DNA of 64,000 bases. Origin: an uncultured Acidobacteriia bacterium (lineage in GTDB: Bacteria; Acidobacteriota; Terriglobia; Bryobacterales; Bryobacteraceae). The translations under genes and the position numbers were made by a program. The notes beneath the pieces are model-generated. The model was not told the origin of the DNA, did no database searches, and worked only from the letters and a program-made list of their open reading frames with translations. The first letter of the stretch is position 1. Every line of letters begins with the position of its first letter. Location: contig CAIRSA010000372.1 in the NCBI GenBank assembly GCA_903881085.1, positions 1 through 64,000 of the forward strand. The letters run 5' to 3'. This document shows positions 15,128-36,450 of the stretch, one piece after another.

Positions 15128-16860
15128 TCATTGTCTTCGCCGCGCTGATCTACCTTGGCTGCATCGTCAGCCCACCATCATTGATGGACGACGTGGATGC
15201 CGTGCAGGCGCAGATCGCGCGCAACATGCTCGACTCCGGCGACTGGGTGACGGCGCGCCTGGATGGAGTCGCCTACCTGGAAAAATCGCCGCTCAAGTAT
15301 TGGATGATCGCCGTCAGCTACATGATCTTCGGCCCTACCGATTGGGCCGCACGCATGCCGCTGGCGCTGGGCGTGATCGTGCTTTGCTGGCTTGTATTTC
15401 TGATGGGCCGCTGGGCTTTTGACGCGCTGGCAGGCTTCTATGCGGGCATGATCCTGGCGACGTGCATCGGACTATGGCTGTTCACGCGCATACAAATTCC
15501 CGATGCAATCCTCACAGCGACCATTGCCCTTGCAATGTGGAGCCTGCTTCGCGCGATCGATCCCGATGAGCCGCGCCCGCGCTTGTGGGCCGCGTCGCTC
15601 GCTGCCTCAATCGCCGTGGGCCTGCTGCTGAAAGGCCTGATCGCCGCGGTATTTCCAGTAGCGGCGGGTCTGCTCTATCTCGGCTTCACGAAGCAACTGT
15701 TCTCGCTCGAGACATGGAAACGCATCCGGCCATTTTCAGGCATCGCCATCATCCTGATCATTGCAGCCCCGTGGCACGTGCTCGCCACGCTGGCCAATCC
15801 GCCGTATTTCGATTTCACCATGAAGAGCGAACCGGGCCACTACCACGGCTTCTTCTGGTTCTACTTCTTCAATGAGCATGTATTCCGTTTCCTGAACATG
15901 CGACATCCGCGCGATTACAACACCGTGCCACGCGTATTGTTCTGGGCCTTTCATCTGCTGTGGATGTTCCCGTGGAGTGTATTCTTTCCGAAGCTGGTGA
16001 AGCTCACCTACAAACCCTTAGACCGCGCAGGACGCATGCGCCTGCTGTGCCTCTGCTGGACCGGCTTCCTGCTCACATTCTTCACTTTCTCAACAACGCA
16101 GGAATATTATTCGATGCCCTGCTACCCCGCGCTGGCATTGCTATTGGGCTCTGCGCTGGCAACCGAGGACTCACTTTCGCGCATCGGCAGCCGCGTACTC
16201 GCTGTAGTCAGCGCACTCGCCGCCGCTGCGGTTGCCGCCATCTTCATCGCAGTGCGCAACCTGCCAACTCCGGGCGACATTTCGAACGCACTGACGCAGA
16301 ACCCCGATGCCTACACGCTTTCGCTCGGTCACATGGGCGACCTGACGCTGGAATCATTCGCCTATCTCCGCGTTCCGCTACTGTTAGCAGGCGTGGCCTT
16401 CCTGATCGGCGCATGGGGCGCGTGGAGTCTGCGCAGAGTCAGCCGCGCACTGGCACTTGGCGCGATGATGACTCTCTTTTTCCACGCTGCGCGGCTGGCG
16501 CTAATCGCCTTCGACCCGTACCTGGCCTCGCGCCCGCTGGCCGAAGCGCTGATGCAGCAGCCCGCCGGCCAGCTCATTGTTGACGACCAATACTACACGT
16601 TCTCCAGCATATTCTTTTACACCAACCGGACTGCACTATTGCTCAACGGGCGAGTAAACAACCTGGAATACGGCGCCTACGCGCCCGGTGCAGTTCAGGT
16701 CTTCATCGGTGACGAAGACTTCGCCGCGCGTTGGCGCTCCACCCAACGCTACTATCTGGTGATCGAAAAACCAAAGCTTGCGCGCATCGAAAAACTAATC
16801 GGCGTTGCAGCCATTCACGTCATCAAAGAAAGCGGCGGCAAGCTGCTCGTTTCAAACTGA
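15085..16860 (+). CDS. GT39/ArnT-like membrane glycosyltransferase
   Basis: A 591-residue polytopic protein. PPSLMDDVDAVQAQIARNML in the first periplasmic loop carries the DD motif of PMT/ArnT (GT39/GT83) enzymes, and LEKSPLKYWMIAVSY is the following conserved helix start. About eleven helices occupy residues 10-460, followed by a soluble C-terminal domain. It would transfer a sugar from an undecaprenyl-phosphate donor in the periplasm, for example to lipid A or protein. ATG 15085 lies inside the end of asnB; an earlier ATG at 15049 lacks family similarity. cydA begins 13 bases downstream. Confidence 0.82.
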   Translation: MGNRNQLERYYGAIVIVFAALIYLGCIVSPPSLMDDVDAVQAQIARNMLDSGDWVTARLDGVAYLEKSPLKYWMIAVSYMIFGPTDWAARMPLALGVIVLCWLVFLMGRWAFDALAGFYAGMILATCIGLWLFTRIQIPDAILTATIALAMWSLLRAIDPDEPRPRLWAASLAASIAVGLLLKGLIAAVFPVAAGLLYLGFTKQLFSLETWKRIRPFSGIAIILIIAAPWHVLATLANPPYFDFTMKSEPGHYHGFFWFYFFNEHVFRFLNMRHPRDYNTVPRVLFWAFHLLWMFPWSVFFPKLVKLTYKPLDRAGRMRLLCLCWTGFLLTFFTFSTTQEYYSMPCYPALALLLGSALATEDSLSRIGSRVLAVVSALAAAAVAAIFIAVRNLPTPGDISNALTQNPDAYTLSLGHMGDLTLESFAYLRVPLLLAGVAFLIGAWGAWSLRRVSRALALGAMMTLFFHAARLALIAFDPYLASRPLAEALMQQPAGQLIVDDQYYTFSSIFFYTNRTALLLNGRVNNLEYGAYAPGAVQVFIGDEDFAARWRSTQRYYLVIEKPKLARIEKLIGVAAIHVIKESGGKLLVSN

Positions 16861-16873
16861 GACAATAAGCTAT

Positions 16874-18202
16874 ATGGATTCAGCGCTGGCGATCCACCGA
16901 CTCCACTTCGCGTTCACGATTACGTATCACTACATTTTCCCGCAGTTGACCATGGGGTTGGCCCTGCTGATACTCATCCTGAAAACCCTAGCACTCAAAA
17001 CGGGCGACGAGCACTACAACGATTGCGCAAGATTCTGGATACGCCTCTTTGGCATCAACTTCGCCATGGGAGTAGTGACCGGCATTCCCATGGAATTTCA
17101 GTTCGGCACAAACTGGGCGCGATTTTCCAGGGCCGCGGGCGGAGTCATCGGCCAGACTCTGGCGATGGAAGGCGTCTATTCGTTCTTCCTCGAATCCACA
17201 TTTCTGGGCCTGCTTGTTTATGGTGAAAAACGGCTCAGCAAACTCGCACACTGGTTCGCGGCATTGGCGGTCTTTGCCGGCTCGTGGCTTTCCGGATATT
17301 TCATCATCGTGACCGATGCCTGGATGCAACACCCGGTTGGCTACAAGATTGGCCAGGCCGGCGACATCCAACTCGACAGCATCACCGCGCTGTTCTTCAA
17401 CCCTTGGCTGATGTGGCAGTACCTGCACAACATGACCGGCGCTGTCGTCACCGGCGCATTCACCATGTGCGCTGTGGGTGCCTTCTACCTGCTCGAAGGC
17501 AAGCATGATCGTTTCGCTAAGACATCTCTCACCCTTGGCGTCATCACTGGTTTCATCGCCTCTATGACGATGGCCTTCCCCACCGGCGACGGCCAGGGCA
17601 AGATGGTCGCACAGTATCAACCGGCAACGCTGGCCGCGATGGAAGGGCTGTTCCACTCCGAAAAAGGCGCGCCGCTTGCCATCCTGGGGCAGCCCGATAT
17701 GGACAAGCTGCAACTCGACAATCCGCTGCTGGTGCCAAAACTACTGAGCTTTCTTACCTACCAGCGATGGTCCGCCGAAGTGCGCGGTCTCGATGAATTC
17801 CCGCGCGAGCAGTGGCCCGACAATCTTCCGCTGTTGTTCTACAGCTTCCACATCATGATCGGCCTCGGCACCATTTTCATTGCAGTCACCGGCCTCGCAT
17901 TGCTGCTTCTTTTCCGGGGCGCGCTATGGACGGCGAAGCCCATTCTATGGGCTCTGATGCTGCTGCTTCCCTTCCCCTTCATCGCCAACACCGCAGGATG
18001 GATGACCGCTGAAATTGGTCGCCAGCCTTGGCTCATTTATGGCTTGATGCGCACGGACAAAGGCTTTTCCGCCAACGTCTCCGCAGGCAACGGTCTGTTC
18101 ACGCTGATGGGCTTCATGGGCATGTATGGGCTGCTAACCATTCTCTACCTCTTCATGATGCAGCGCGAACTCCAGCAAGGGCCTGAAGGAGGTGGCCACT
18201 AG
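16874..18202 (+). CDS. cydA: Cytochrome bd ubiquinol oxidase subunit I
   Basis: 442 residues. IHRLHFAFTITYHYIFPQLTMGL places His 19, the high-spin haem ligand, exactly as in Escherichia coli CydA. GIPMEFQFGTNWARF and GRQPWLIYGLMRTDKG are family hallmarks. The quinol loop is of the short type. The protein is a quinol-oxidising, O2-reducing enzyme of the inner membrane with high oxygen affinity. It overlaps cydB by one base (TAG/GTG), as in a coupled operon. Confidence 0.95.
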   Translation: MDSALAIHRLHFAFTITYHYIFPQLTMGLALLILILKTLALKTGDEHYNDCARFWIRLFGINFAMGVVTGIPMEFQFGTNWARFSRAAGGVIGQTLAMEGVYSFFLESTFLGLLVYGEKRLSKLAHWFAALAVFAGSWLSGYFIIVTDAWMQHPVGYKIGQAGDIQLDSITALFFNPWLMWQYLHNMTGAVVTGAFTMCAVGAFYLLEGKHDRFAKTSLTLGVITGFIASMTMAFPTGDGQGKMVAQYQPATLAAMEGLFHSEKGAPLAILGQPDMDKLQLDNPLLVPKLLSFLTYQRWSAEVRGLDEFPREQWPDNLPLLFYSFHIMIGLGTIFIAVTGLALLLLFRGALWTAKPILWALMLLLPFPFIANTAGWMTAEIGRQPWLIYGLMRTDKGFSANVSAGNGLFTLMGFMGMYGLLTILYLFMMQRELQQGPEGGGH

Positions 18203-19182
18203 TGGAAACGATTTGGTTCTGCCTCGTGGCATTCTCACTCGCCGGTTATGTTGTGCTGGATGGCTTCGACCTTGGCGCGGGCATTGTTCATCTCATCGCT
18301 GCGCGCGACATCGAACAGCGCCGCCTTCTGCTCGCCTCCATCGGCCCCTTCTGGGATGCCAACGAAGTGTGGCTGCTCGCCTCCGGCGGCACCCTCTACT
18401 TCGCCTTCCCTACCCTCTATGCGTCGAGCTTTAGCGGCTTCTATCTGCCGCTCATGATGGTGCTGTGGCTGCTAATTCTACGCGGCATTGCCATCGAGTT
18501 TCGCAACCACATCGAAAGCAACACGTGGATACAGCTGTGGGATGTTGTGTTCTCAGGCGCCAGTGGGCTGCTCGCCATCTTTCTTGGTGCGGCCATCGGC
18601 AATGTGGTGCGCGGCGTACCACTCGATCGCAGCGGCGAATTCTTCCTGCCGCTGTGGGGCGAGGTCGGCATACTCGATCCGTACACCATCGCCACCGGCC
18701 TTCTCGCCTTCGCCGCCCTCGCATTGCACGGAGCATTGTGGGTCCGCCTAAAAACCAATCTCCACGTGAACCACATTCTTGTTTGGGCGTGGCGCGGCAC
18801 AGTCGTGTTCACCTTGCTGGTGACATGGGCGACGTTCCAGATTCAACCCATCATCGGCTTCAGCTTCATCACTCGCAAGTGGGGCTACATTATTCCAGCC
18901 ATCGCACTGGCAGGCCTTTGGACAGCCGGCAGCGCGCGCGAGTTAAAATCATTTCTCGGTTCCTGCGTTTTTTTGCTCGGCATGATGGCAAGTGTCGCAT
19001 TCGGCCTGTATCCCAACGTGCTGCCCTCGCTGGGCAATGGCGCCACGAATCTGACGATCTACAACACGGCCACCGGCAGCTACGGCATGAGCGTGGGCCT
19101 GGCGTGGTGGATTCCCGGCATGATCCTGGCGACTGCTTACGCAATTTTCCAGTACCGGAAATTTAGCGGCAAAGCGGCATAA
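18202..19182 (+). CDS. cydB: Cytochrome bd ubiquinol oxidase subunit II
   Basis: 326 residues with eight to nine helices, the normal size. FSLAGYVVLDGFDLGAGIVH and IGPFWDANEVWLLASGGTLY are the CydB signature regions, and RGIAIEFR follows. The start is GTG at 18202, sharing its first base with the cydA stop. No cydX-like short gene follows; the next gene is an esterase 10 bases on. Confidence 0.94.
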   Translation: METIWFCLVAFSLAGYVVLDGFDLGAGIVHLIAARDIEQRRLLLASIGPFWDANEVWLLASGGTLYFAFPTLYASSFSGFYLPLMMVLWLLILRGIAIEFRNHIESNTWIQLWDVVFSGASGLLAIFLGAAIGNVVRGVPLDRSGEFFLPLWGEVGILDPYTIATGLLAFAALALHGALWVRLKTNLHVNHILVWAWRGTVVFTLLVTWATFQIQPIIGFSFITRKWGYIIPAIALAGLWTAGSARELKSFLGSCVFLLGMMASVAFGLYPNVLPSLGNGATNLTIYNTATGSYGMSVGLAWWIPGMILATAYAIFQYRKFSGKAA

Positions 19183-23695: not shown

Positions 23696-26101
23696 ATGAG
23701 ATACTGCGACGTGAGCCTTCCGGTCCCGCTCGACCGGCCCTTCACCTACGAACTTCCGCTAACCCTACGCCATCGCGCGCAGCCGGGCTGCCGCCTCATC
23801 GTACCATTCGGCTCGCGCAAGATGACCGGAGTCATTTTACGCCTTCATGACGACCCACCGCAAATGGCCGCTAAAGAGGCTCTGTTACTGCTGGACGAAG
23901 AGCCGGCCATCAGCCCCGAATTGATGGCGCTCGCCCGCTGGATCTCTGCCTACTATTGCGCCCCGCTTGGCGAAACTCTGCGTGTGATGACGCCACTGTC
24001 GTCCGAAGTTCGCAAGGGCAAGATCTACACCGTTACCGATCAGGGCCGCGACATCGTTCGCCAGCTTTCGCTCATCACCGAAACCGATCCACAAACACAG
24101 ATTCTGCAGCTGCTGGAAACACGTCCGCTCTCAGCCGGCTACATCATCAAGAAGGTGACGGACGGTGCCCGTCATTTGAAAGCGCTCGAAAAGCGCGGCC
24201 TCATCTCGCGCGAAGACGTGCAGGAGTCGCGCGATCCGCTGCGCGCCTCGGCAGCGCATCTTGCGGTGGAGTTCACAGGCCGCCCCGAGGGCGTGAAGCT
24301 GATCAAGGCCGAACGTGAACTGATGGCATTTCTCGAATTGCATCCTGGCATCCACAATCTGGCCGCGGTAGACGAGATGCTCGCCGGCGCCAGCGTGGCC
24401 GCACGTTCACTGGCGCGCAAAAAACTACTCACGCTGAAAATCGTTACGACGCCAATCACGCCAATCGAAATCAAGCGCCGCCACTCGCTGAACGAGCGTC
24501 AGCAGTATGCCGTGCACGAGATCAAGAGCGCGATTCAAGAAGCGAAGTTCCAGGCCTTTCTCCTCGCCGGGGTAACAGGCTCCGGCAAAACGGAAGTCTA
24601 TCTGTCGGCCATCGACGAAACGCTCGCCATCGGCCGCAGTGCGCTATTGATGGTGCCTGAAATTGCGCTCACGCCTGCCGTGGCCGGACAATTCTTTTCG
24701 CGCTTTGGCGACAACGTGGCCATTCTGCATTCCGCGTTCACCGACACCGAACGCGTTGAGCAGTGGCGCCGCATCCGCAGTGGCGCGGCGCGCGTTGTTG
24801 TCGGCACGCGCTCCGGCGTTTTTGCTCCGGTGCAGAATCTGGGCCTCATCATTGTCGATGAAGAGCACGACCAAAGTTACAAGCAGGAAGAGGTGCCGCG
24901 CTACAACGGCCGCGACGTGGCCATCGTCCGTGCTCGTGCGGCAAACGCCGTGGTTGTGGTCGGCTCAGCCACGCCAAGCCTCGAAACCCGCTACAACGTC
25001 GAACGCGAAAAATACCGCCTGCTGGAAATGCCCGAGCGCATTGAGAGCCGCCCCATGCCGCAGGTGGAGTTGATCGACATGCGCGCCGAATTCCTGGAAT
25101 CACGCAAGCAGGCGACGTTCTCACGCCGGCTGGTGGAAGCCGTGAATGAACGTCTGGAAAGCGGCGAGCAGACCATGCTGCTGCTCAACCGCCGCGGTTT
25201 TTCGAGCTTTGTGACATGCCGAGCATGCGGAGAAAAGATTCAATGTACCAACTGCGCCGTTACGCTGACCTACCATCGCCGCGATAAGCGCCTGCTGTGC
25301 CACTACTGCAACTATGCGGAGAAGGTCCCGAACAAGTGCCCCAAGTGCGATAGCGAGCACATTCAGTTTTTGGGCGTCGGCTCTGAGCGCGTAGAAGAGG
25401 AACTGCACCAGGCATTCCCGAAAGCGCGCGTGGCAAGGCTTGACCGCGACACGGCATCGAACAAGAACCACTTCCAGTCGATTTTGCAGGGCTTCCGAGA
25501 AGGCAACTACGACATATTGGTGGGCACGCAGATGATCGCCAAAGGGCACGACATCCCCAACGTCACGCTGGTTGGAATCGTCTCCGCCGATATCGGCCTT
25601 GGCATGCCCGACTTCCGCGCCGCCGAACGAACTTTTCAATTGTTGACCCAGGCCGCCGGGCGCGCTGGCCGCGGCACACTGCGCGGGCGAGTGCTAATCC
25701 AGACCATCAACCCGGAACATTATGCAGTGCGTTTCGCTTCCCTGCAGGACTACGGTCTCTTCTACGAAAAGGAACTGCAATTCCGCAAGCTGATGCGATA
25801 CCCACCTTTCAGCGCACTGGCTAACGTGCTGGTGCGCGCCCAGCAGCAGGAGGACGCATTGCGCATGAGCGCGGAAATCGGGCAGTTCCTCAATCCGCCG
25901 CCAGACGGCATGAAAGTGATGGGTCCGGCTGAAGCGCCAGTGCCACGTCTGAAGAATGAATTCCGCTATCAGCTGCTGCTGAAATCGATCGATCGCAAGA
26001 AACTGAACCAGATTCTCCACAACCTGCGCGACTTTGCGCAGAAGCGGCAATGGCCGGCGACTTCATTGGTGATTGACGTTGACCCATTGAGTCTGCTTTA
26101 A
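23696..26101 (+). CDS. priA: Primosomal replication protein N' (helicase)
   Basis: 801 residues. The N-terminal DNA-binding part has PLDRPFTYELP. The superfamily-2 helicase core shows Walker A AGVTGSGKTEVYL, Walker B IIVDEEHDQSYKQEE, VVVGSATPSLET and QAAGRAGRGTLRGRVLIQT. The zinc-binding insert contains four CxxC pairs from FVTCRACGEKIQCTNC to NKCPKCDS. It restarts stalled replication forks. An acetyltransferase gene follows 14 bases later and may be cotranscribed. Confidence 0.95.
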   Translation: MRYCDVSLPVPLDRPFTYELPLTLRHRAQPGCRLIVPFGSRKMTGVILRLHDDPPQMAAKEALLLLDEEPAISPELMALARWISAYYCAPLGETLRVMTPLSSEVRKGKIYTVTDQGRDIVRQLSLITETDPQTQILQLLETRPLSAGYIIKKVTDGARHLKALEKRGLISREDVQESRDPLRASAAHLAVEFTGRPEGVKLIKAERELMAFLELHPGIHNLAAVDEMLAGASVAARSLARKKLLTLKIVTTPITPIEIKRRHSLNERQQYAVHEIKSAIQEAKFQAFLLAGVTGSGKTEVYLSAIDETLAIGRSALLMVPEIALTPAVAGQFFSRFGDNVAILHSAFTDTERVEQWRRIRSGAARVVVGTRSGVFAPVQNLGLIIVDEEHDQSYKQEEVPRYNGRDVAIVRARAANAVVVVGSATPSLETRYNVEREKYRLLEMPERIESRPMPQVELIDMRAEFLESRKQATFSRRLVEAVNERLESGEQTMLLLNRRGFSSFVTCRACGEKIQCTNCAVTLTYHRRDKRLLCHYCNYAEKVPNKCPKCDSEHIQFLGVGSERVEEELHQAFPKARVARLDRDTASNKNHFQSILQGFREGNYDILVGTQMIAKGHDIPNVTLVGIVSADIGLGMPDFRAAERTFQLLTQAAGRAGRGTLRGRVLIQTINPEHYAVRFASLQDYGLFYEKELQFRKLMRYPPFSALANVLVRAQQQEDALRMSAEIGQFLNPPPDGMKVMGPAEAPVPRLKNEFRYQLLLKSIDRKKLNQILHNLRDFAQKRQWPATSLVIDVDPLSLL

Positions 26102-27304: not shown

Positions 27305-28648
27305 TTACAGGGCCGCCAGATCCCTCTTGTGAGCCCAGACCTTTTCGAACGCGTTCACGTATTGCGAGTTTACTTCCTGCGCGTCGCCGTGCAGGTTGGG
27401 CAAGAAGATGTGGGTGCGGTTAACCTCCAAGGTCCCGGGCAAGGCGTCCGGAATCACTGGCGGGTGATGCCACCATTTCGATTCGGCATAAATGGCGAGC
27501 GTGTGCTGCTGCGGATAATCCCAGAACGTAGCGCGGACGCCTTCCGCCACCAACGCCTTGATCAGCGCGCCGCGCGAAAAGCCGGCTTTCTTTTCGTCCA
27601 GGATCAGCATATTGCCGTTGTAATAGACGCGGTCCTGATCGGGCCGGCAGCGCGGTTCGCTCAGTCCAGGAAGTTCCACCAGGCGGTCGTTGAGATTTCT
27701 GATGTTGGCCTTGACCAGCGTGTTGCGCTCCGCCAGACCGCGCAGTTGTTGCCGTCCGATTGCGGCGGCAAAGGGGTGCATGCGGAGTTTCATGCCGAAG
27801 CCGGTGCCAGAGTAGCGGCGCACGGGACTTTCCTTGGGGAACTTGTCCGGATCCTCATAATGGCCGAAGGCTGCGGCGCGCTCGTAGTATTCGCGCGTCT
27901 GGTACATTCCCATGCCGCCTTCCACGCAGGGCATGGGTTTGCTGGCCTGAAAACTGAAGGCCGCCATGACGCCCCAGGTGCCCGTCTTCTTGCCCTGCAT
28001 GGAAGCGCCGTGGGCATGCGCTGAATCCTCAAGCAGGATGATGCCTTTCTCTTTGGCGAAGGCTGAGATGTGGTCCATTTCGCAGGGCAGACCCCAGGAA
28101 TGCATCACTACCATGGCCTTCGTCCGAGCGGTGAGCTTGCGTTTGGCGTCTTCCAGGTCGAAGCAGGCCGTCTTGGGATCGATGTCAATGAAGATTGGCA
28201 CGTAGCCCAAGAAGCGCATGGCCAGGCACGTAGAAAAGAAGGTGTACGAGGGCACCATGATCTCGCTGCCAGCGGGCAGATCGAGCGCGAAATACATGCT
28301 GGTGAGGGCGCTGGATCCGTTCATGTGGGCTTTGGCAAAGGCCGAGCCGGTGAAAGCGCACCATTCTTTTTCGAACAGGGGCAGTTCGCTGTAATACTTG
28401 TTCTCGTCAATCAGGTCGTGCAGCACCTTCTTTTCGGCTGCGCCGTAGCGCGGCCACTTTGTCATCGCCGTGATTTTGGCCGCGGGCACGGTGACGGCTT
28501 TCTTGCCGCCCGATAGGGCCAGCGGTTCGGTGGAGGCGGCACTCAGCGCCCGGCTGGCGGCTCCGGCCGCAGCCAGAATTGCGCCGCCAGCGTTGACAAA
28601 CTCTCTTCGGGTAGTGGGGATGAATCTCGTGGTCTTAATTTGAGTCAT
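27305..28648 (-). CDS. DegT/DnrJ/EryC1-type aminotransferase with RR leader
   Basis: 447 residues. The PLP-enzyme core is clear: LHDLIDENKYYSE, MVPSYTFFSTCLAMRFLGYVP, MVVMHSWGLPCEM and EDSAHAHGA. FSFQASKPMPCVEGGMG carries the lysine that binds PLP. The family aminates keto-sugars, or makes 3-amino-5-hydroxybenzoate. The N-terminus TTRREFVNAGGAILAAAGAASRA resembles a twin-arginine leader, so the enzyme may be exported folded with its cofactor. TTG 28660 is another possible start. No nucleotide-sugar genes are adjacent; the substrate is not deduced. Confidence 0.8.
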   Translation of the reverse strand: MTQIKTTRFIPTTRREFVNAGGAILAAAGAASRALSAASTEPLALSGGKKAVTVPAAKITAMTKWPRYGAAEKKVLHDLIDENKYYSELPLFEKEWCAFTGSAFAKAHMNGSSALTSMYFALDLPAGSEIMVPSYTFFSTCLAMRFLGYVPIFIDIDPKTACFDLEDAKRKLTARTKAMVVMHSWGLPCEMDHISAFAKEKGIILLEDSAHAHGASMQGKKTGTWGVMAAFSFQASKPMPCVEGGMGMYQTREYYERAAAFGHYEDPDKFPKESPVRRYSGTGFGMKLRMHPFAAAIGRQQLRGLAERNTLVKANIRNLNDRLVELPGLSEPRCRPDQDRVYYNGNMLILDEKKAGFSRGALIKALVAEGVRATFWDYPQQHTLAIYAESKWWHHPPVIPDALPGTLEVNRTHIFLPNLHGDAQEVNSQYVNAFEKVWAHKRDLAAL

Positions 28649-28761
28649 AAAAGAGATCAATAGACGCTCTTATCTTGATTGCAGCCTTCAATGGAATATT
28701 ACTCCATCGGCGAGCTCTAAGCAAGAATTGTAAGGTGGATCCCGGGTGGTAACATTGACAA

Positions 28762-29823
28762 ATGAGGCGAGCCACCCCAATTGCAATTTGGGCGATTGTT
28801 ATCGCTACGGCGGCCAGCTCTTGTTTCGCATCGGATTGGAACAAGCAACTGGCGGCTGAATATCTGGATGCGCGTCAAGAGGCCTGGTTCGCCTGGCGCG
28901 CGCCCGCAAAAGACGCCGGCGGCGCGTGTTTATCGTGCCATACCGGACTGACCTATCTTCTGGCGCGCCCCGCATTGCGCGCCGCACTGCACGATGCAAC
29001 GCCCACCAAACGCGAGACCGCGCTGCGCGAAGGCATTACGTTCCGACTGGAAAGCGAAAAGCCAGGGCGCATGTTCAAAGGCCGCACCAAGGAGCCCGAA
29101 CTGACGCAGGCCGCAGCAGTGCAGGCGGTGGTTGAGACGTGCGCACTGGCAACCGGCAAGGCGCCGGCTGAGATGCTGGCAAAGTCGCTGGACCGCATGC
29201 TGCAATTGCAGGATGCGCAAGGTGGCTTTCCATGGTTCGATCTGCACGATTCGCCGTGGGAGGAGGCCAAGTCCGGCTACTTCGGCGGAGCGCTGGCGGC
29301 TGCGGCGTTGGACATGGCTCCCGCAGGCTATACGGACAAAACTGAGGTAAAGCGGCAGATCGCCGCATTCGAAGAGTATCTGAAGCGCGAGTTCAGCGCG
29401 CAACCGCTGCATCACCGCCTGACGCTGCTTTCGGCTTCGCAGGGTATTGGCAAGGCCGTTCCCGCGGACGTGCGCCAGGCAACGCTCGATGAAACGGCCC
29501 GGCTGCAACACACGGATGGCGGGTGGACGATCGCCGAATTGGGGCCGTGGAAGTCGAAGGGCAACCTGGTTGAGAACGCCGAAAGTGACAACTATGCCAC
29601 GGCCATTGCAGTGATGGCGCTGCAGCGCGCGGGCGGGGCGAAAAAGAGCGTGGAGAGTGGGCTGGCGTTTCTGCGCACGCATCAGGATGCAGCGACGGGG
29701 GCGTGGCTGGCATCGTCGATGAATCATAAGTACCCACCGGAATCGATGATGTTTCAGTTCATGAATGAGGCGGCTACGGCGTATGCGGCCATTGCGCTGT
29801 TGGAGTCAGAGAAAAAGAATTAG
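28762..29823 (+). CDS. Exported haem-c protein with terpene-cyclase-like helical repeats
   Basis: 353 residues. A signal peptide (first about 23 residues) is followed by a CLSCH motif at residues 56-60, a single c-type haem site. The rest consists of repeated helices with QW-like motifs typical of the prenyltransferase/squalene-cyclase alpha/alpha toroid: LQDAQGGFPWFD, LQHTDGGWTIAE, FLRTHQDAATGAWLAS. The DxDD catalytic motif of class II cyclases is not seen, so it is probably not a cyclase. A role as periplasmic electron-transfer or sensing protein is only inference. It is a lone gene between oppositely oriented neighbours. Confidence 0.75.
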   Translation: MRRATPIAIWAIVIATAASSCFASDWNKQLAAEYLDARQEAWFAWRAPAKDAGGACLSCHTGLTYLLARPALRAALHDATPTKRETALREGITFRLESEKPGRMFKGRTKEPELTQAAAVQAVVETCALATGKAPAEMLAKSLDRMLQLQDAQGGFPWFDLHDSPWEEAKSGYFGGALAAAALDMAPAGYTDKTEVKRQIAAFEEYLKREFSAQPLHHRLTLLSASQGIGKAVPADVRQATLDETARLQHTDGGWTIAELGPWKSKGNLVENAESDNYATAIAVMALQRAGGAKKSVESGLAFLRTHQDAATGAWLASSMNHKYPPESMMFQFMNEAATAYAAIALLESEKKN

Positions 29824-29862: not shown

Positions 29863-32628
29863 TTAGTTGGGCGAGACGGCGACAGTAACTCCGACTTGGC
29901 TGGTTGAGGAGCCAATGGTAACCAATACCGAAACTGCACCCGCCTGGGCGTTGGCTGGGATTCTGGCATTGATTTGCATGAGGCCGGCGACGATTCCAGG
30001 TGCTGCGCCGGCGTAGAGAAGTTCGGCGGCTTTGCCGTCAATGATCACGCTGACGCGCTGCTGAGGTTTCGGGTATGTAGCCGTTGCCAATTGCCCGTCC
30101 ACGCCCGCGGGGGAGGTCTGGCCTTCTCCGGTGGCGTACATTACGAGGATAGACCCGGGCTTGGCTGGCGCGGCGGATTGATTCAACGCACCATTCTCAT
30201 TGAAAGCGGCCGCCTGGCCTTTGCCTGAAGCGTCCATGGTGAACAGCCCCGGGGCTGCGGGCGCGATGGGAACAACAATGGGATCGCTTCTGACGCCTTG
30301 ATACTCCATCTGGACGCTGGCGGTTGTGCCACTGATTCCGTAAGGCACAATCGCGGAGACTTGCGAAGACCATGTATAGAGGATAGGCGCGGGCGTGCCA
30401 TTGAATAGAACGCGGGAGGTGGCGAGGCTTGTTCCATAGAACCCGTTGACGTCGAGAGTCGCCTTGGTAAGTTGGGAGGGGCCTACTAAGGAACCATAGA
30501 GAACGACTATCTCCCCTGGAGCGATAGCTCCGCCCAGGTTGCTGGCGGCATTGGTCACACTGCTGACGGAAAGCAGGGCGGCGACGGGCTTCAGAACGCG
30601 GATGGCGTTGTTGCCGGAATCGGCGATGTAGACGTTGCCGGATAAGTCTACCGCGAGTCCCCATGTGGTGCTGATTTGCGCGCTGGTAGCGCGACCGGCA
30701 TCGCCTGAAAAGCCGCGAACGCCAGTGCCGGCGATCGTATTAATGATACCCGTGGAACTTACTTTCCGGATGGCATAGTTATCGCTATCCACCAGATATA
30801 AGTTGCCGGTTATATCCAGTGCGATGCCCAGAGGGTAGGCTAACTGCGCGCCGGCTGCGGGGCCGCCGTCGCCCGATGAGCCGTAGGCGCCAGTTCCGGC
30901 GACGGTAGAGATGGTTCCATTCGGGGTAACTCTGCGGATGCGGTGATTCAGATAGTCGGCAAAGTAGAAGTTACCGGAAGAATCAAGCGCCATACCCCAG
31001 ACGGTGCTTATTTGCGCGTTCACGGCCTGGCCGCCATCGCCCGAGTAACCGGAAGAGCCGGTGCCGGCGATGGTAGTTATAATACCGTTCGTCGAGACTT
31101 TGCGAATGCGATAGTTCCCATAGTCGGCGATGTATAAGTTGCCGTCGGCATCGAGAACCACATCGTTGATGTTGTTGATTTGGGCGCTCTGCGCGGGGCC
31201 GCCGTCACCTGAGTAACCGGGCGAGCCGGTGCCGGCAACTGTGGTGATGATGCCGTTGGCGCTGACTTTGCGGACGCGATGGTTGAAGGAATCGGCGATA
31301 TACAGTTCGCCGGTTGGACTTACGGCCAGACCAAGTTGATACGCAAGTTGGGCATTGGTGGCCGGGCCGTTGTCACCGGAATAGCCTTGCGTCCCATTGC
31401 CGGCGACGGTAGTGATAATGCCATTGGTTGCGACCTTGCGAACGCGGTAGTTTCGACCATCGGCGATGTACACGTTGCCCGCGGCATCAGTGGCAAGGCC
31501 GCGCGGCTGGTCCAACTGCGCGCCTATCGCAGAGCCGCCGTTAACGGCATAAGATCGCGAACCGTTGCCTGCGATGGAGACGATCGAGCCGGTAGTGGTG
31601 ATCTTGCGGAGTCGGAAGTTGAACTGGTCGGCCACGTACAGATTGCCAAGCAGGTCGACCGAAAGGCCCGTAGGCGTATTCAGCTGGGCTGTTGCTGCCG
31701 GGCCGCCCTCGTTTGTAAACCCGGCGGAGCCGTTGCCTGAAACCGTGGTGACGATTCCGCTGGTGGATACCTTGCGAACGCGGTTATTGTTTGTGTCGGC
31801 TATGTAAAGATTACCCGCATAATCCACGGCCACGCCAGCGGGTGAAGATAACTGGGCAGTTACGGCCTGTCCGTTGTCGCCGGAGTAACCGGTAGTTCCA
31901 ATCCCGGCAACGGTCGAGATAATGCCATTGGCTACTTTTCGAATGCGGCTATTGCCGCTGTCGGCAATGTACAAGTTACCGAAGGCATCCGCGGCAAGTC
32001 CAGCGATGTTACTCAGCTGCGCGGAGGTTGCAGGACCGGCATCGCCGGAGAAGCCTGAAATGCCGTTTCCAGCAATGGTGGTAATGACGCCGTTGGACCC
32101 GATGCGGCGAACGCGACAGTTGTTCGCGTCGGCGACATACAGGTTTCCGGAAGCATCGAGGGCGAGGCCTACCGGATTCGATAGCTGGGCGTTTACGGCG
32201 GGGCCGGTGTCGCCGGAAAAGCCGGCCGTTCCGGTGCCGGCAACCGTTGCGATGGCGCCTGCCTGTGTGATTTTTAGAATGCGATGAAAAGTTGTGTCGG
32301 CCAGGTATACGTTTCCCGCGGTGTCGGCGGCGACGCTGCTCAGATTGCCTAGTTGCGTGGTTGCTGCTGGCCCGCTGTCGCCGGGGCGGCCCGCTCCAGC
32401 TACGCGCGTTAAGACGCCGCGGTTGTCAACCTTGTATAGGGTGGAGGCGCTGTTGGTGAAGTAGGCATCTCCGGCGGGGCCGATGGCAACCGAGGAGGGT
32501 TCCCCGATCGAGGCCGAGGGCGCCGCGATGGGCGTTGGGGTGGCCGGTCCGCCAGCGACGGTAGCGATGACGTACTGCTGGGCTACTGCTACCAACGAGG
32601 TGAGCGCTAGGCCGAGGATTATCTTCAT
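29863..32628 (-). CDS. NHL-repeat beta-propeller protein with Solibacter C-terminal domain
   Basis: 921 residues with a signal peptide (MKIILGLALTSLVAVAQQ). Residues about 20-690 contain about twelve units of 56 residues, each with GNLYIAD-type and TVAGTG.GFSGDGGPA-type motifs, as in NHL or RHS-like propellers. Residues about 695-921 (AASNLGGAIAPGEIVVLYG... PGLFTMDASGKGQAAAFNENG... VMYATGEGQTSPAGVDG) are the TIGR03437 domain characteristic of Candidatus Solibacter proteins. It is probably secreted or surface-attached. The repeats are about 168 bp at DNA level and are coding, not CRISPR. Confidence 0.9.
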   Translation of the reverse strand: MKIILGLALTSLVAVAQQYVIATVAGGPATPTPIAAPSASIGEPSSVAIGPAGDAYFTNSASTLYKVDNRGVLTRVAGAGRPGDSGPAATTQLGNLSSVAADTAGNVYLADTTFHRILKITQAGAIATVAGTGTAGFSGDTGPAVNAQLSNPVGLALDASGNLYVADANNCRVRRIGSNGVITTIAGNGISGFSGDAGPATSAQLSNIAGLAADAFGNLYIADSGNSRIRKVANGIISTVAGIGTTGYSGDNGQAVTAQLSSPAGVAVDYAGNLYIADTNNNRVRKVSTSGIVTTVSGNGSAGFTNEGGPAATAQLNTPTGLSVDLLGNLYVADQFNFRLRKITTTGSIVSIAGNGSRSYAVNGGSAIGAQLDQPRGLATDAAGNVYIADGRNYRVRKVATNGIITTVAGNGTQGYSGDNGPATNAQLAYQLGLAVSPTGELYIADSFNHRVRKVSANGIITTVAGTGSPGYSGDGGPAQSAQINNINDVVLDADGNLYIADYGNYRIRKVSTNGIITTIAGTGSSGYSGDGGQAVNAQISTVWGMALDSSGNFYFADYLNHRIRRVTPNGTISTVAGTGAYGSSGDGGPAAGAQLAYPLGIALDITGNLYLVDSDNYAIRKVSSTGIINTIAGTGVRGFSGDAGRATSAQISTTWGLAVDLSGNVYIADSGNNAIRVLKPVAALLSVSSVTNAASNLGGAIAPGEIVVLYGSLVGPSQLTKATLDVNGFYGTSLATSRVLFNGTPAPILYTWSSQVSAIVPYGISGTTASVQMEYQGVRSDPIVVPIAPAAPGLFTMDASGKGQAAAFNENGALNQSAAPAKPGSILVMYATGEGQTSPAGVDGQLATATYPKPQQRVSVIIDGKAAELLYAGAAPGIVAGLMQINARIPANAQAGAVSVLVTIGSSTSQVGVTVAVSPN

Positions 32629-32755: not shown

Positions 32756-34018
32756 TTACTCCGGGTAGACCCACGGGGCACGGTAGGTGCTGCGCAGGAA
32801 TTTGTTGGCTGCGTCGTCGCCGATGCAGCGGTTGCCGTCCCAGCGGATGCTGTGGCCAGCGCGCAGGCTGACCATGCCGAGCAGCGCCGCAACGGTGGCG
32901 CGGTGGCCGATTTCGATGTCGCGCACAGGCTTCTTTTTCTTCTTGATTGCCGTTAGGAAATCGGCCCACAGTTCCTTGATGTTTTGGCCGTCGGGGTCGT
33001 TGAGCTGCGGCTCCACGTGGATCACTTGCTGGCTTTTCTTCGCCGGATAGAACGTCCAGCCGTCGCGCCAGCCCATGTGAAACGTGCCTTCCGTGCCGTA
33101 GAAATACGCGCCGATGAGGTGCTTTTCGGCCTCGTTGCCCGCGTAGTGGCGCTGCTCCCAGGTGGCGCTGAAGGATTCGAATTCGTAGGTGACAATCTGT
33201 GTGTCGGGCGCGTCGGTGGAATCCTGGCGCACGAAGCGGCCGCCAGTGGAATAGACGGCTTTGGGATGCGTTTCGTCGGTCCACCAGAGTACCTGGTCCA
33301 TCCAGTGGACGCCCCAGTCGCCGAGGGTGCCGTTGGCATAGTCGAGAAAGTGGCGGAACCCTTTGGGGTGTATGGCGGGGTTGAAGGCGCGGCTGGGCGC
33401 GGGGCCGAGCCACATGTCCCAATCCATGCCCTTGGGCGGTTCGCTGTCGGGCGTCTTCTTGCCGGGACCGCCGGAGGCATGGGCAAAGGTGCGGACCATG
33501 CCGATCTTGCCTACTTTCCCGGATTTCAAGAACGCCATGCCGGTGATGGGGTGCGGCGAGACGCGTCGATGCAGGCCAACCTGCACGATGCGGTCGGCTT
33601 CGCGTGCGGCTTTCACCATGGCCTTGCCCTCGTCGATGGTGTGGCTGATGGGCTTTTCAACGTAGACGTGGGCGCCGGCCTTAACGGCGGCGATGGTGGG
33701 CATGGCGTGCCAGTGGTCGGGCGTGGCCACAATGCAGATGTCGGGTTTCTCTTTGGCCAGCATTTCGCGGAAGTCGCGGTAGTGGCGGGGCTGGTCGGAG
33801 GAGAGCTTGGAGACCAGTTCGGAGGATTTGGCGAGTTGCGCGGGGTCGGGGTCGACAAGCGCGACGGCGCTGCATTCGCCCGAAGCCAGGGCTTCGCGCA
33901 GGATGTTGCCGCCCCACCAGCCGGAGCCAATGAGCGCGGTCTTGTATTTGCGGCCCGCGGGGGCGGAAAGCAGGGGAGTGGCGGAGAGGGCGGATTGGAA
34001 GAATGTTCGGCGGTTCAT
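32756..34018 (-). CDS. Exported Gfo/Idh/MocA-family oxidoreductase
   Basis: 420 residues. The leader MNRRTFFQSALSATPLLSAP has a twin-arginine pattern, so the enzyme is probably exported with bound NADP. The Rossmann loop is KTALIGSGWWGGNIL and the lysine motif is VYVEKPISHTIDEG. GTLGDWGVHWMDQVLWW is the active-site histidine region. The C-terminal domain has GTEGTFHMGW. The family acts on sugars; the substrate is unknown. Its paralogue at 342-1430 has no leader. Its start at 34018 is about 107 bases from the divergent EF-hand gene. Confidence 0.85.
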   Translation of the reverse strand: MNRRTFFQSALSATPLLSAPAGRKYKTALIGSGWWGGNILREALASGECSAVALVDPDPAQLAKSSELVSKLSSDQPRHYRDFREMLAKEKPDICIVATPDHWHAMPTIAAVKAGAHVYVEKPISHTIDEGKAMVKAAREADRIVQVGLHRRVSPHPITGMAFLKSGKVGKIGMVRTFAHASGGPGKKTPDSEPPKGMDWDMWLGPAPSRAFNPAIHPKGFRHFLDYANGTLGDWGVHWMDQVLWWTDETHPKAVYSTGGRFVRQDSTDAPDTQIVTYEFESFSATWEQRHYAGNEAEKHLIGAYFYGTEGTFHMGWRDGWTFYPAKKSQQVIHVEPQLNDPDGQNIKELWADFLTAIKKKKKPVRDIEIGHRATVAALLGMVSLRAGHSIRWDGNRCIGDDAANKFLRSTYRAPWVYPE

Positions 34019-34124: not shown

Positions 34125-34892
34125 ATGACTAACATGCTTTTCGTAGCTATTCTTGCCGCATCCAGTTTGATGGCGCAGCCGCCGGAAGGTGAGCGTGGGC
34201 CGCGTCCGGGGTTCCCTCCCGGTGGATTCATGCGCTTTAATCCGCTGCTTTCTGCGATCGACACGAATCACGACGGCGTAATTTCGGAAAGCGAGATTGC
34301 GGTGGCGGCGAAGTCGCTGATGATTTTGGATAAGAATGGCGATGGTCAGATTACGGCGGACGAGATGCGTCCCAGTTTCGGGCCGGGTGGACCGGGCGGA
34401 CCGGAAGGGCGGCGGCGCGAAGAGGGCGGACGCGAGGGCGGTCCTGGCAATAATGCGGCGGCCGAACTGGTAAAGACGCTGATGGCCTTCGATAAGAATG
34501 GCGACGGCAAGCTTTCGAAAGACGAATTGCCGGAGCGCATGCAGGGCATGTTCGCGCGCGGCGATGCCGATCACGATGGCTTTCTGACGCCTGAAGAGAT
34601 CACGAAAATGGCTGCGGCACAATCGCAGGCGCGCGGTGGTGGCCGTGGTGAAGAGCGCCGCGGAGAAGAGCGTCGTGGCGAAGGCGAACGCCGCGGACCC
34701 GGTGGGGAAGGCGGCGGCTTCCGCAGGCCGGACGCGGTAATGGCGGCCCTCGACACAAACCACGACGGGACGCTATCGGCCGAGGAGATCAAGAACGCCC
34801 CAGCCTCATTGAAGAAACTCGATACGAACGGCGATGGTAAAATCAGCGAAGACGAAGTTCGTCCGAATTTCCCGCCACGCCGCGAAGAATAA
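34125..34892 (+). CDS. Secreted EF-hand calcium-binding protein
   Basis: 255 residues with an N-terminal signal peptide. Six EF-hand loops can be counted: DTNHDGVISESE, DKNGDGQITADE, DKNGDGKLSKDE, DADHDGFLTPEE, DTNHDGTLSAEE and DTNGDGKISEDE, each with the D-x-[ND]-x-D-G calcium signature. Two proline/glycine/arginine-rich linkers separate them in pairs. It probably acts as an extracytoplasmic calcium binder. The ApbE gene starts 19 bases later, which suggests one operon. Confidence 0.85.
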   Translation: MTNMLFVAILAASSLMAQPPEGERGPRPGFPPGGFMRFNPLLSAIDTNHDGVISESEIAVAAKSLMILDKNGDGQITADEMRPSFGPGGPGGPEGRRREEGGREGGPGNNAAAELVKTLMAFDKNGDGKLSKDELPERMQGMFARGDADHDGFLTPEEITKMAAAQSQARGGGRGEERRGEERRGEGERRGPGGEGGGFRRPDAVMAALDTNHDGTLSAEEIKNAPASLKKLDTNGDGKISEDEVRPNFPPRREE

Positions 34893-34911
34893 CTGAATCA
34901 CCGGATCACTC

Positions 34912-36450
34912 ATGAAAAAACTGGTCACAGCTACTGCTATCGTTGTCTCCGCTCTTTGCCTTTTCGGCGCGAGCCGCTTGGAGCAACCTTCCAACACTTA
35001 CACCCTGCACCATGAGAACGTGCTGGGAACTTCCATGGAGATTCGCCTTAACGCCGAATCCCCTGCCGCGGCCGCCCGCGCGGAAGCCGCTACACTGGCA
35101 GAAATTGACAGACTGGGGCGCATTCTGAGCTCCTACGACAGCAAGAGCGAATTCAGCCGCTGGATGCGCACCACTGGGCAGCCCGTGGCCGTTTCCGAGG
35201 AGTTGCGCGAAGTGCTGACATTGTGGGACCGCTATCGTGCGCTAACTGGCGGAGCCCTGAATCCGGCCGCCGAAGCGGTGAACCGCGTGTGGAAGCATGC
35301 TGCGAAACAGAATCGCATGCCTTCGGCCCAGGAGTTAACGGCGGCGGTTCGCATCGCCGGCGGAAAACATTGGAGCCTGGGCGCGGGCACGGCCACGCAC
35401 TTGAGCGCGGCCCCGTTGGCGATGAACTCTTTTGTGAAGAGCTACATTCTTGCCAAGGCGAACGCAGCCGCACTCGCGGCAGGCGGTGTAACGTCGGCGA
35501 TGGTCAACATTGGCGGGGACATCGTGACTGGCGGCAAAAGCGAACAGACGCTGCAGATCGCAGATCCGGTGGCCAAAGCCGATAACGCCGCACCGATGGC
35601 GCAGATCGCGGTTCGCAACCGCGCCGTAGCAACCAGTGGCAACTACAAACGCGGAGTGCAGATCGGCGGACAGCATTATTCGCATATCGTGGACCCGCGC
35701 ACGGGCTCGACAGCCGACCAGATCGTGAGTACTACGGTGGTGGCGTCAAACGCCGTGGATGCAGGCGCACTGGCAACTGCCTTTTCAGTGATGACTCCGG
35801 AAGAGAGCAAGCGCGTGGCAGCGCTGATCCCGGGCGTGGAATACATGCTGGTGGACCGCAACGGACATCGCATCACCAGCGCCGGCTGGAGCCGTATGGA
35901 AACGGCGCCCTTCAAACCGGTGCAGTTGGCAGCGGCAATGCCCCGCCCTGGCCTGCTGGCCGCGCAAGGACAAGCGGGCGGCGCGTGGAATGCCGGTTTC
36001 GAATTGAACATTACGCTGGCGCTGGCGCAGATCGAAGGGCAGCGCACTCGGCGGCCTTACGTCGCGGTGTGGATCGAAGATAAAGACAAGTTCCCGCTGC
36101 GAACCATCGCGCTGTGGTACAACAAAGACCGCTGGTTGCCTGAGCTGAAAGCCTGGACGCGCGATGAACGCGTGCGGTCGCTGGCCGAAGGCACGGACAT
36201 CTCTGGCACGGTGGCCAGCGCCACACGCCCGCCCGGCAAGTACAACTTCAAGTGGGACGGCAAAGATAACGCCGGCAAGCCGGTGAAGCCCGGCAAGTAC
36301 ACGGTGATGATCGAAGCCTCGCGCGAACATGGCACGTACCAGGTGATGCACCAGGAGATGGACTTCACCGGCACACCGAAACAGATCCAGATCCCTGGAA
36401 ATACAGAAATCGAGTCTGCAACCCTTGATTACCGCAAAGCTACCCGTTAG
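34912..36450 (+). CDS. FAD:protein FMN transferase (ApbE) fused to DUF2271
   Basis: 512 residues with an N-terminal signal peptide. Residues about 30-330 are an ApbE domain: VLGTSMEIRLNAE, LSSYDSKSEFSRW, MVNIGGDIVTGG and HIVDPRTGSTADQIVSTTVVA, with SNAVDAGALATAFSVM next to the metal/FAD site. It attaches FMN covalently to extracytoplasmic proteins. Residues about 345-510 match DUF2271 (AGFELNITLALAQIEG, RPYVAVWIEDKDKFP, YNFKWDGKDNAGKPVKPGKYTVMIEASREHG), a domain usually found in flavin/PepSY gene sets. The PepSY-type partner overlaps its 3' end by 26 bases. Confidence 0.85.
   Translation: MKKLVTATAIVVSALCLFGASRLEQPSNTYTLHHENVLGTSMEIRLNAESPAAAARAEAATLAEIDRLGRILSSYDSKSEFSRWMRTTGQPVAVSEELREVLTLWDRYRALTGGALNPAAEAVNRVWKHAAKQNRMPSAQELTAAVRIAGGKHWSLGAGTATHLSAAPLAMNSFVKSYILAKANAAALAAGGVTSAMVNIGGDIVTGGKSEQTLQIADPVAKADNAAPMAQIAVRNRAVATSGNYKRGVQIGGQHYSHIVDPRTGSTADQIVSTTVVASNAVDAGALATAFSVMTPEESKRVAALIPGVEYMLVDRNGHRITSAGWSRMETAPFKPVQLAAAMPRPGLLAAQGQAGGAWNAGFELNITLALAQIEGQRTRRPYVAVWIEDKDKFPLRTIALWYNKDRWLPELKAWTRDERVRSLAEGTDISGTVASATRPPGKYNFKWDGKDNAGKPVKPGKYTVMIEASREHGTYQVMHQEMDFTGTPKQIQIPGNTEIESATLDYRKATR

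What the first reader, a model, noticed from the sequence alone, without database searches (positions are those of the whole stretch)
28762..29823. Haem-c protein with a terpene-cyclase-like toroid
A CLSCH haem motif just after the signal peptide is joined to several QW-like repeats of the squalene cyclase/prenyltransferase fold, without a visible DxDD motif. A c-type haem on this fold is not a well known arrangement, and the partner is not evident from context.
Basis: partly seen in the sequence, partly recalled or inferred. Interest (0 to 1): 0.55.

Follow-up and report, generated by a model that had tools for sequence, protein, structure and literature searches.

The report
Haem-bearing secreted toroid, likely electron carrier
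A secreted soil-bacterial protein appears to carry one haem on the barrel-shaped fold best known from terpene-making enzymes, and its relatives tend to occur with enzymes that oxidise amines or alcohols, so it is probably an undescribed kind of electron-carrying cytochrome.

Summary
Window 28762-29823 (+) encodes a 353-aa protein with an export-type start and one CLSCH haem-c site. Its AlphaFold2 model (pLDDT 90.7, pTM 0.89) is a 12-helix alpha/alpha toroid; squalene-hopene cyclases are the best PDB matches (Z 21.8). The CxxCH lies inside the toroid, in the loop before the first inner helix; DxDD is absent. CxxCH is kept in 29 of 29 full-length rows found without the motif and in 20 of 20 more found by profile. 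A scan of one genome collection found 279 related stretches.
The window gives no partner; relatives do. A full quinohaemoprotein amine dehydrogenase (qhp) gene set lies within 10 kb in 8 of 80 named loci, QhpG-like alone in 2 more, and a same-strand PQQ-type or GSDH dehydrogenase adjoins it in 5. In 395 genomes it co-occurs with the QHNDH gamma subunit (12 of 24, p 1.3e-8) but not with LodA (1 of 24). QHNDH was not found in the window's own genome. Best reading: a toroidal monohaem cytochrome taking electrons from periplasmic quinoprotein dehydrogenases. The haem toroid is well supported; the function is inferred.

The parts
28762..29823 (+). Gene for the exported monohaem toroid protein, 353 aa (stop included in the coordinates)
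   Evidence: full-length group-A relatives at 31-45% identity
28762..28833 (+). Signal peptide, about residues 1-24 (MRRATPIAIWAIVIATAASSCFAS), cleavage site read by eye
   Evidence: Sequence; relatives have a similar hydrophobic start. No signal-peptide program was run
28834..29820 (+). (alpha/alpha)6 toroid domain, residues 25-353
   Evidence: AlphaFold2 model, 12 helices after the leader helix; PDB matches span residues 22-353
28927..28941 (+). CLSCH haem-c attachment site, residues 56-60, in the loop from helix 28-45 to helix 60-75
   Evidence: kept in 29 of 29 rows and 20 of 20 further stretches
29209..29235 (+). QW-like loop 1, residues 150-158
   Evidence: Q150 and W158 invariant in the 27 rows of A1
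29506..29526 (+). QW-like loop 2, QHTDGGW, residues 249-255
29683..29706 (+). QW-like loop 3, QDAATGAW, residues 308-315
29761..29763 (+). Met334, a candidate sixth haem ligand (weak)
   Evidence: Met in 95 of 99 group-A rows, but Val, Phe and Leu in three intact ones; Ile in 10 of 10 group-B rows

Best explanation
The gene encodes a periplasmic monohaem c-type cytochrome built on a single squalene-cyclase-like alpha/alpha toroid. Shown by sequence and model: the export-type start, the conserved CxxCH, the toroid and the absence of the cyclase acid motif. Inferred: haem is attached by the genome's own cytochrome c assembly proteins and lies at the mouth of the toroid, held by His60. Inferred: the protein takes electrons from periplasmic quinoprotein dehydrogenases and passes them to the respiratory chain. 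In several relatives the donor would be the quinohaemoprotein amine dehydrogenase (a CTQ enzyme). In others, and probably in this genome, where QHNDH was not found but many PQQ-type propeller proteins were, it would be a PQQ-type dehydrogenase.
For: Fold: pLDDT 90.7, pTM 0.89, 12 helices; SHC best by two aligners (8pak_B E 3.2e-5; 3sqc_A Z 21.8, rmsd 3.6 over 270 residues). Haem site: CxxCH in 29 of 29 rows and 20 of 20 further stretches, neither set chosen by the motif. Haem-c assembly proteins in the genome: PF01578, 3 matches over cut-off. Linkage: full qhp set (alpha, beta, gamma, QhpD) within 10 kb in 8 of 80 named loci, QhpG-like alone in 2 more; also in G030. The alpha, QhpD and gamma proteins tested pass NCBIfam equivalog cut-offs. 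With the 11 linked rows marked, the label changes 7 times on a 90-row tree. In L037, L050, L051, L061, L094 and L134 the only called CxxCH proteins are QHNDH alpha and the toroid. Co-occurrence in 395 genomes: toroid 24, gamma 32, both 12, Fisher 1.3e-8; by genus 15, 22 and 8 of 213, p 1.4e-5; group A alone 10 of 17, p 3.8e-8. Second set of 101 genomes: 20, 18 and 9, p 0.0014. Control, LodA: 1 of 24, p 0.56. Same-strand adjacency to PF01011 (L071, L082, L089, L102) or GSDH (L043) dehydrogenases.
Against: QHNDH gamma and alpha were not found in the window's genome, and no quinoprotein lies next to the gene. 12 of 24 toroid genomes lack gamma and 20 of 32 gamma genomes lack the toroid. 65 of 80 named loci show neither arrangement, though many contigs are short (54 of 80 have 6 kb or more downstream) and 6 were not surveyed for adjacency. 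The linked label is also clustered on the tree (for the 9 full-qhp rows, 3 changes against the other marked groups, shuffled mean 6.4), so kinship explains part of it, and the Fisher tests do not correct fully for kinship. In L085 and L109 another called CxxCH protein lies nearby. For group B alone co-occurrence is not significant (2 of 7, p 0.10). No sixth haem ligand is strictly conserved, odd for a simple carrier. The loop with CxxCH is among the less certain parts of the model (block pLDDT 73-74). No electron transfer was tested.
Confidence: 0.48

Rival explanations
1. It is a haem-dependent maturation factor for tryptophylquinone enzymes, working like MauG: in the periplasm it oxidises the dihydroxy-Trp made by QhpG to the CTQ quinone.
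For: Linkage to qhp, with QhpG-like genes directly beside the toroid in L037, L050, L051, L061, L090 and L101. The QhpG paper only proposes that the alpha-subunit haems may catalyse the step from dihydroxy-Trp to CTQ (PMC7876137, passages read). The absence of an invariant sixth ligand would suit a haem that binds peroxide or oxygen.
Against: 20 of 32 gamma-bearing genomes lack the toroid, and 12 of 24 toroid genomes, the window's among them, lack gamma. Some neighbours are PQQ-type enzymes, which need no such step.
Confidence: 0.13
2. It is a haem enzyme: the toroid cavity binds a hydrophobic or terpenoid substrate and the haem at its mouth oxidises it.
For: SHC-like fold; many invariant or nearly invariant residues besides the haem site, such as Trp42, Arg69, Trp158, Thr280, Trp315 and Asn321; no strictly conserved sixth ligand.
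Against: No terpenoid family is among the 25 commonest of 118 Pfam families in 101 neighbours scanned (the other 93 were not listed). The recurrent partners seen are dehydrogenases. QW loops alone explain some of the conservation.
Confidence: 0.2
3. It is a haem-based redox or gas sensor, or a binding protein, with no role in dehydrogenase electron flow; the linkage is only loose clustering of periplasmic oxidation genes.
For: Most named loci show no qhp or dehydrogenase neighbour; apart from the toroid itself, the commonest neighbour cluster is a large TonB-receptor-like family (named by eye) in 18 loci, 10 of its 19 members within 4 kb.
Against: No sensor output domain was found; co-occurrence is with QHNDH and not with LodA.
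Confidence: 0.12
4. CxxCH binds no haem (a structural disulphide or metal site) and the protein is a degenerate cyclase-like scaffold.
For: No haem attachment has been shown; the loop is among the less certain parts of the model.
Against: Cys, Cys and His are kept in 29 of 29 rows and 20 of 20 further stretches found without the motif; export-type start; the genome has haem-c assembly proteins.
Confidence: 0.05

Closest known systems
Squalene-hopene cyclase (Alicyclobacillus acidocaldarius SHC, PDB 2sqc/3sqc)
   Same: alpha/alpha toroid with QW-like loops; best structural and profile match
   Different: One toroid of 353 aa against a chain of 631 aa, export-type start, no DxDD, carries CxxCH; scores far below the TIGR01507 cut-off (18.9 against 431.1 bits)
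Single-toroid cyclases of 361-367 aa such as MstE (6sbb) and 8pak/8paj
   Same: Size and single toroid (Z 19.2 to 21.5)
   Different: I know of no haem motif in them (recalled, not checked); 8pak matches the family profile at E 1.3e-6, best stretch 280-325 only
Class I cytochromes c (PF00034)
   Same: CxxCH monohaem attachment site in an exported protein
   Different: No PF00034 match for the window protein up to E 10; 1 of 27 family members matches, at E 0.045; the fold is a toroid
Quinohaemoprotein amine dehydrogenase (qhp) system
   Same: The toroid gene is a recurrent neighbour of qhp genes in relatives
   Different: The toroid matches none of the qhpABCDEFGR products listed in PMC7876137 (passages read; judged by their descriptions), and QHNDH was not found in the window's genome
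MauG, di-haem TTQ maturase
   Same: A haem-c protein tied to a tryptophylquinone enzyme (analogy only)
   Different: One haem site and a toroid; the only Pfam family matched up to E 10 is SQHop_cyclase_C. No direct comparison with MauG was made

Membership tests
Squalene-hopene cyclase family | alpha/alpha toroid with QW motifs | tested here: met
   (QW-like strings, not all matching the full consensus)
Squalene-hopene cyclase family | DxDD catalytic acid motif | tested here: not met
   Absent in the window protein; D.DD strings occur in 4 of 109 family rows (L007, L037, L038, L050), position not examined
Squalene-hopene cyclase family | Passes the curated cut-off of the equivalog model | tested here: not met
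   TIGR01507 18.9 bits against 431.1
Squalene-hopene cyclase family | Cyclises squalene | not testable with these tools
   Needs an enzyme assay
c-type cytochromes (broad sense) | CxxCH in an exported protein, conserved in relatives | tested here: met
   export judged from the leader by eye
c-type cytochromes (broad sense) | Haem covalently attached | not testable with these tools
   Haem stain or mass spectrometry needed; PF01578 assembly proteins are present in the genome
Class I cytochrome c | Cytochrome c fold / PF00034 | tested here: not met
   No match up to E 10; the model is a toroid
Class I cytochrome c | Conserved Met sixth ligand | tested here: inconclusive
   Met334 in 95 of 99 group-A rows (three intact exceptions), 0 of 10 in group B
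QHNDH accessory protein | Encoded with qhp genes | tested here: inconclusive
   8 of 80 named loci with a full qhp set, 2 with QhpG-like only; alpha and gamma not found in the window's genome

The most novel reading that the evidence does not exclude
An undescribed class of c-type haem protein in which the haem guards the mouth of a terpene-cyclase-like toroid and oxidises a substrate held in the cavity, rather than only carrying electrons. (The related maturase reading, a monohaem MauG-like finisher of the CTQ cofactor, is rated apart as a rival at 0.13.)
Probability: 0.2. Interest if true: 0.82.

Novelty: new variant of a known kind. Interest (0 to 1): 0.57.

Why it matters
If true, it adds a fold to those known to carry haem c and gives a likely respiratory role to a family that the Pfam and NCBIfam models searched recognise only as weakly cyclase-like (279 related stretches in one genome collection). 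It offers a candidate for the electron acceptor, or the last maturation enzyme, of amine oxidation in Acidobacteriota, and a gene of about 1 kb is easy to test directly.

Tried and rejected
A plain cytochrome c domain joined to a toroid was rejected: the toroid takes up residues 25-353 and the CxxCH lies inside it. A true squalene-hopene cyclase was rejected: no DxDD and a score far under the curated cut-off. A chance motif on a shadow ORF was rejected: the reverse strand has a 265-aa ORF, but the plus-strand protein has full-length relatives and a confident fold. QHNDH as the partner in this very genome was rejected: gamma not found (the same search matched 18 of 101 and 32 of 395 genomes) and alpha not found (matched in 4 of the 8 genomes given). 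The beta search was empty too, but had no positive control and shows little. Met334 as a sixth ligand looked convincing until three intact group-A proteins (L033 Val, L068 Phe, L091 Leu) lacked it (the fourth, L050, has an unknown base there). His at position 278 in 10 of 10 group-B rows against Tyr, Phe or Val in group A is one event on one branch and proves little. Conservation on the mouth side of the barrel: 17 of 104 positions in outer-to-inner loops and 1 of 32 in inner-to-outer loops are 90% conserved, but QW loops alone could explain this. A single-protein scan of genome contigs found nothing. Papers on a haem-bearing toroid: searches gave 0, 0, 30 (15 listed) and 7 papers; only listings and starts of abstracts were seen, and no title names such a protein. 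Searches on QHNDH (5, 6 and 4 papers, listings only) gave nothing on the toroid by title. One paper, PMC7876137, was read in passages. A profile search of the PDB gave 22 distinct sequences at E 1 or less, all cyclases or cyclase-like by name. No haem protein is among the rows listed (50 each); one not listed is not excluded.

Rows dropped: A1 holds 27 of 29 family rows (L028 and L030 left out as near copies). A4 holds the window protein and 76 of 80 named loci (L050, L076, L089, L095 left out). Of the 80 loci, 10 were left out of the neighbour survey as linked and 6 for lack of a called target gene. The Pfam survey took 101 of the 105 neighbours that passed a 90-700 aa filter; 3 of the 101 carry PF01011 and 3 a cytochrome c domain. 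The dehydrogenase neighbours were picked by eye; L071's exceeds the length filter and L089's is cut by its contig end. Toroid genomes were counted at E below 1e-60 (24 of 35 matching genomes; the other 11 matched at E 1e-17 or weaker, over part of the profile in nearly all, and were taken as other toroids). Of the 24, the window's genome and 20 others were read for CxxCH (21 of 21 have it); G121, G143 and G299 were not read. Seven of the 24 were put in group B, four by their sequence and those three by sharing a genus with G307. In some searches, group A was counted at E below 1e-20 (20 of 31). The linkage probability (4.8e-9) assumes one 8-kb cluster in every 6-Mb genome and independent loci; it is rough, and L037 and L050 are close kin. 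In L087 the gene caller missed the toroid, so L087 is not in the CxxCH comparison.

Full report
The gene. Window 28762-29823 on the + strand is an ATG-started ORF of 353 codons. The product starts with a hydrophobic, export-type leader (read by eye), followed by DWNKQLAAEYLDARQ and CLSCHTGLTYLLARP. It is the only close match in its genome, an 11.9-Mb assembly of 588 contigs, completeness 98.6, contamination 5.4 (two further matches at E 0.16 and 0.18). A profile search adds one partial match at 4.5e-11 in a 652-aa frame, probably a true cyclase. The named relatives kept lie chiefly in Acidobacteriota.

Motifs. CLSCH at 56-60 is the only CxxCH; shuffling gives one in 0.095% of cases. QW-like strings lie at 249-255 and 308-315, with a weaker one at 150-158; DxDD is absent. 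Pfam finds SQHop_cyclase_C at 2.5e-8 and nothing else up to E 10. NCBIfam cyclase models match weakly and far below their cut-offs; the same holds for the 77 rows of A4, with no model specific to the family.

Family. A search of 101 related genomes found full-length relatives at 31-45% identity and a second, more distant group at 26-33%. I call these A and B. All 28 full-length relatives read, found without reference to the motif, have CxxCH; so do 20 of 20 further stretches found by profile. Group B has an inserted stretch near residue 265 and a different start of the last helix. A pattern-plus-tblastn scan of one genome collection found 279 related stretches, of which the best 80 were kept: mostly Acidobacteriota, with four Gemmatimonadota, one Verrucomicrobia, two gammaproteobacterial MAGs and one record titled Nevskia soli. 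That scan used a haem-motif pattern or an FM[SQN]DAAT pattern, so its 80 of 80 CxxCH is partly by construction.

Structure. With 77 rows AlphaFold2 gives pLDDT 90.7 and pTM 0.89; after the leader, 12 long helices pair up as six outer/inner pairs (the pairing is my reading of the order of elements, as no coordinates are given). Foldseek and VIA-align put squalene-hopene cyclases first (8pak_B E 3.2e-5; 3sqc_A Z 21.8, 270 residues, 3.6 A), followed by other toroids such as glucuronyl hydrolases and complement thioester domains. Matches cover residues 22-353, so the CxxCH segment is part of the toroid: it lies in the loop from helix 28-45 to helix 60-75, on the side where the QW loops of other repeats lie. 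By analogy with (alpha/alpha)6 enzymes (established knowledge) this would be the mouth of the barrel. No haem was modelled, and this loop is among the less certain parts (blocks of 73-74).

Haem ligation. His60 is the fifth ligand by rule. No sixth ligand is certain. Met334, at the start of the last inner helix, is kept in 95 of 99 group-A rows, but three intact proteins have Val, Phe or Leu, and group B has Ile in 10 of 10. Group B has His at 278 in 10 of 10, where group A has Tyr, Phe or Val. An open or variable sixth site is therefore possible.

Haem supply. ResB was not found, but there are three PF01578 matches over cut-off, one in a 671-aa frame of CcmF size, so haem-c assembly is likely.

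Context in the window. Neighbours are a DegT/DnrJ aminotransferase (27305-28660, -), an NHL-propeller protein (29863-32628, -), a GFO/IDH/MocA oxidoreductase (32756-34018, -) and PriA (23696-26101, +) (ten neighbours scanned). None suggests a partner.

Context in relatives. In 8 of 80 named loci a complete set of quinohaemoprotein amine dehydrogenase genes (alpha, beta, gamma and the radical-SAM maturase QhpD) lies within 10 kb: L037, L050, L051, L061, L085, L087, L094, L109. In L090 and L101 a QhpG-like gene adjoins the toroid without the others on the contig. The same linkage is seen in G030. NCBIfam confirms alpha, QhpD and gamma above equivalog cut-offs in the examples tested, while beta, QhpG and QhpE match below theirs. 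In L037, L050, L051, L061, L094 and L134 the only called CxxCH proteins are QHNDH alpha and the toroid; L085 and L109 have another nearby. L051's record is titled Nevskia soli, but its toroid sits among Bryobacterales, so the record may be mislabelled. On a tree of 90 rows the linked label (11 rows) changes seven times; some changes may be losses, short contigs are coded as unlinked, and the label is also partly clustered. Five other loci have the toroid next to a same-strand dehydrogenase gene: L071, L082, L089 and L102 (PF01011) and L043 (GSDH); L071 and L089 are sisters in the tree. In the blind part of that survey 3 of 101 neighbours carry PF01011. L124 has the toroid behind a PSCyt/DUF1592 cytochrome and a DUF1552 gene, and L085 has a PSCyt/DUF1592 protein on its other side. 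Apart from the toroid itself, the commonest neighbour cluster overall is a TonB-receptor-like family (named by eye) in 18 loci, a family that I recall as common in Acidobacteriota.

Co-occurrence. In 395 genomes of the phylum (searched with a completeness limit of 90), 24 hold the haem toroid (E below 1e-60) and 32 the QHNDH gamma subunit; 12 hold both (odds ratio 17.6, Fisher 1.3e-8). Collapsed by genus: 15, 22 and 8 of 213 (p 1.4e-5). For group A alone it is 10 of 17 (p 3.8e-8); for group B 2 of 7 (p 0.10). In the 101 nearer genomes: 20, 18 and 9 (p 0.0014). LodA, another CTQ enzyme, shows 1 of 24 (13 of 395 overall, p 0.56). These tests do not correct fully for kinship.

This genome. QHNDH gamma and alpha were not found; a beta search was empty but uncontrolled. 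It has 39 PF01011 matches, some of them pieces of one frame; 16 are below 1e-50. So if the protein carries electrons here, a PQQ-type enzyme is the likelier source. This is inference.

Reading. The shared thread of the telling neighbours is periplasmic quinoproteins, which must hand electrons to a redox partner. A monohaem cytochrome beside them is most simply that partner. The rival maturase reading rests on the QhpG neighbours and on the step from dihydroxy-Trp to CTQ, which the QhpG paper assigns to the alpha-subunit haems only as a possibility (PMC7876137, passages). The enzyme reading rests on the fold and the lack of a fixed sixth ligand.

Novelty. The fold is known and the haem attachment is known; their union was not met in the Pfam and NCBIfam scans, the PDB profile and fold lists, or the paper searches named under Tried and rejected. 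It is a new variant rather than a new kind, because each half is familiar.

Noticed in passing
window 50894-51118 (+): A 74-aa protein with an export-type leader and a CATCH motif, possibly a very small monohaem cytochrome; no Pfam family at E 0.001.
   Followed up: partly
window 34125-36450 (+): An EF-hand protein followed by an ApbE/DUF2271 protein.
   Followed up: no
window 16805-19182 (+): Two genes that look like cytochrome bd oxidase subunits I and II (by eye, not searched).
   Followed up: no
L051 5564-6031 (-), L061 5045-5518 (-), L101 6205-6651 (+): A small protein of about 150 aa with a leader recurs near the toroid in qhp or QhpG-bearing loci (likeness by eye); no Pfam or NCBIfam match for the two tested, L061 and L101.
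   Followed up: partly
L086 9008-12059, L096 9059-12113: In two related loci the toroid lies between an aminotransferase-like gene and a PP-binding/thioesterase gene, as if inside a peptide-synthetase cluster.
   Followed up: no
L124 3899-10049; L085 1-2238: A toroid gene in line behind a PSCyt/DUF1592 cytochrome and a DUF1552 gene; in L085 a PSCyt/DUF1592 protein lies on the toroid's other side.
   Followed up: partly
L051: Record titled Nevskia soli (Pseudomonadota), but its toroid groups with Bryobacterales; possibly a mislabelled or mixed assembly.
   Followed up: no
L023-L032 (group B): A distant haem-toroid group with His instead of Tyr at position 278 and Ile instead of Met at 334; no recurrent neighbour seen in the eight unnamed stretches fetched for it or its kin.
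   Followed up: partly
L087: The gene caller used in the scripts missed the toroid here, and an ORF at 13701-15509 with a CxxCH string is probably spurious.
   Followed up: no
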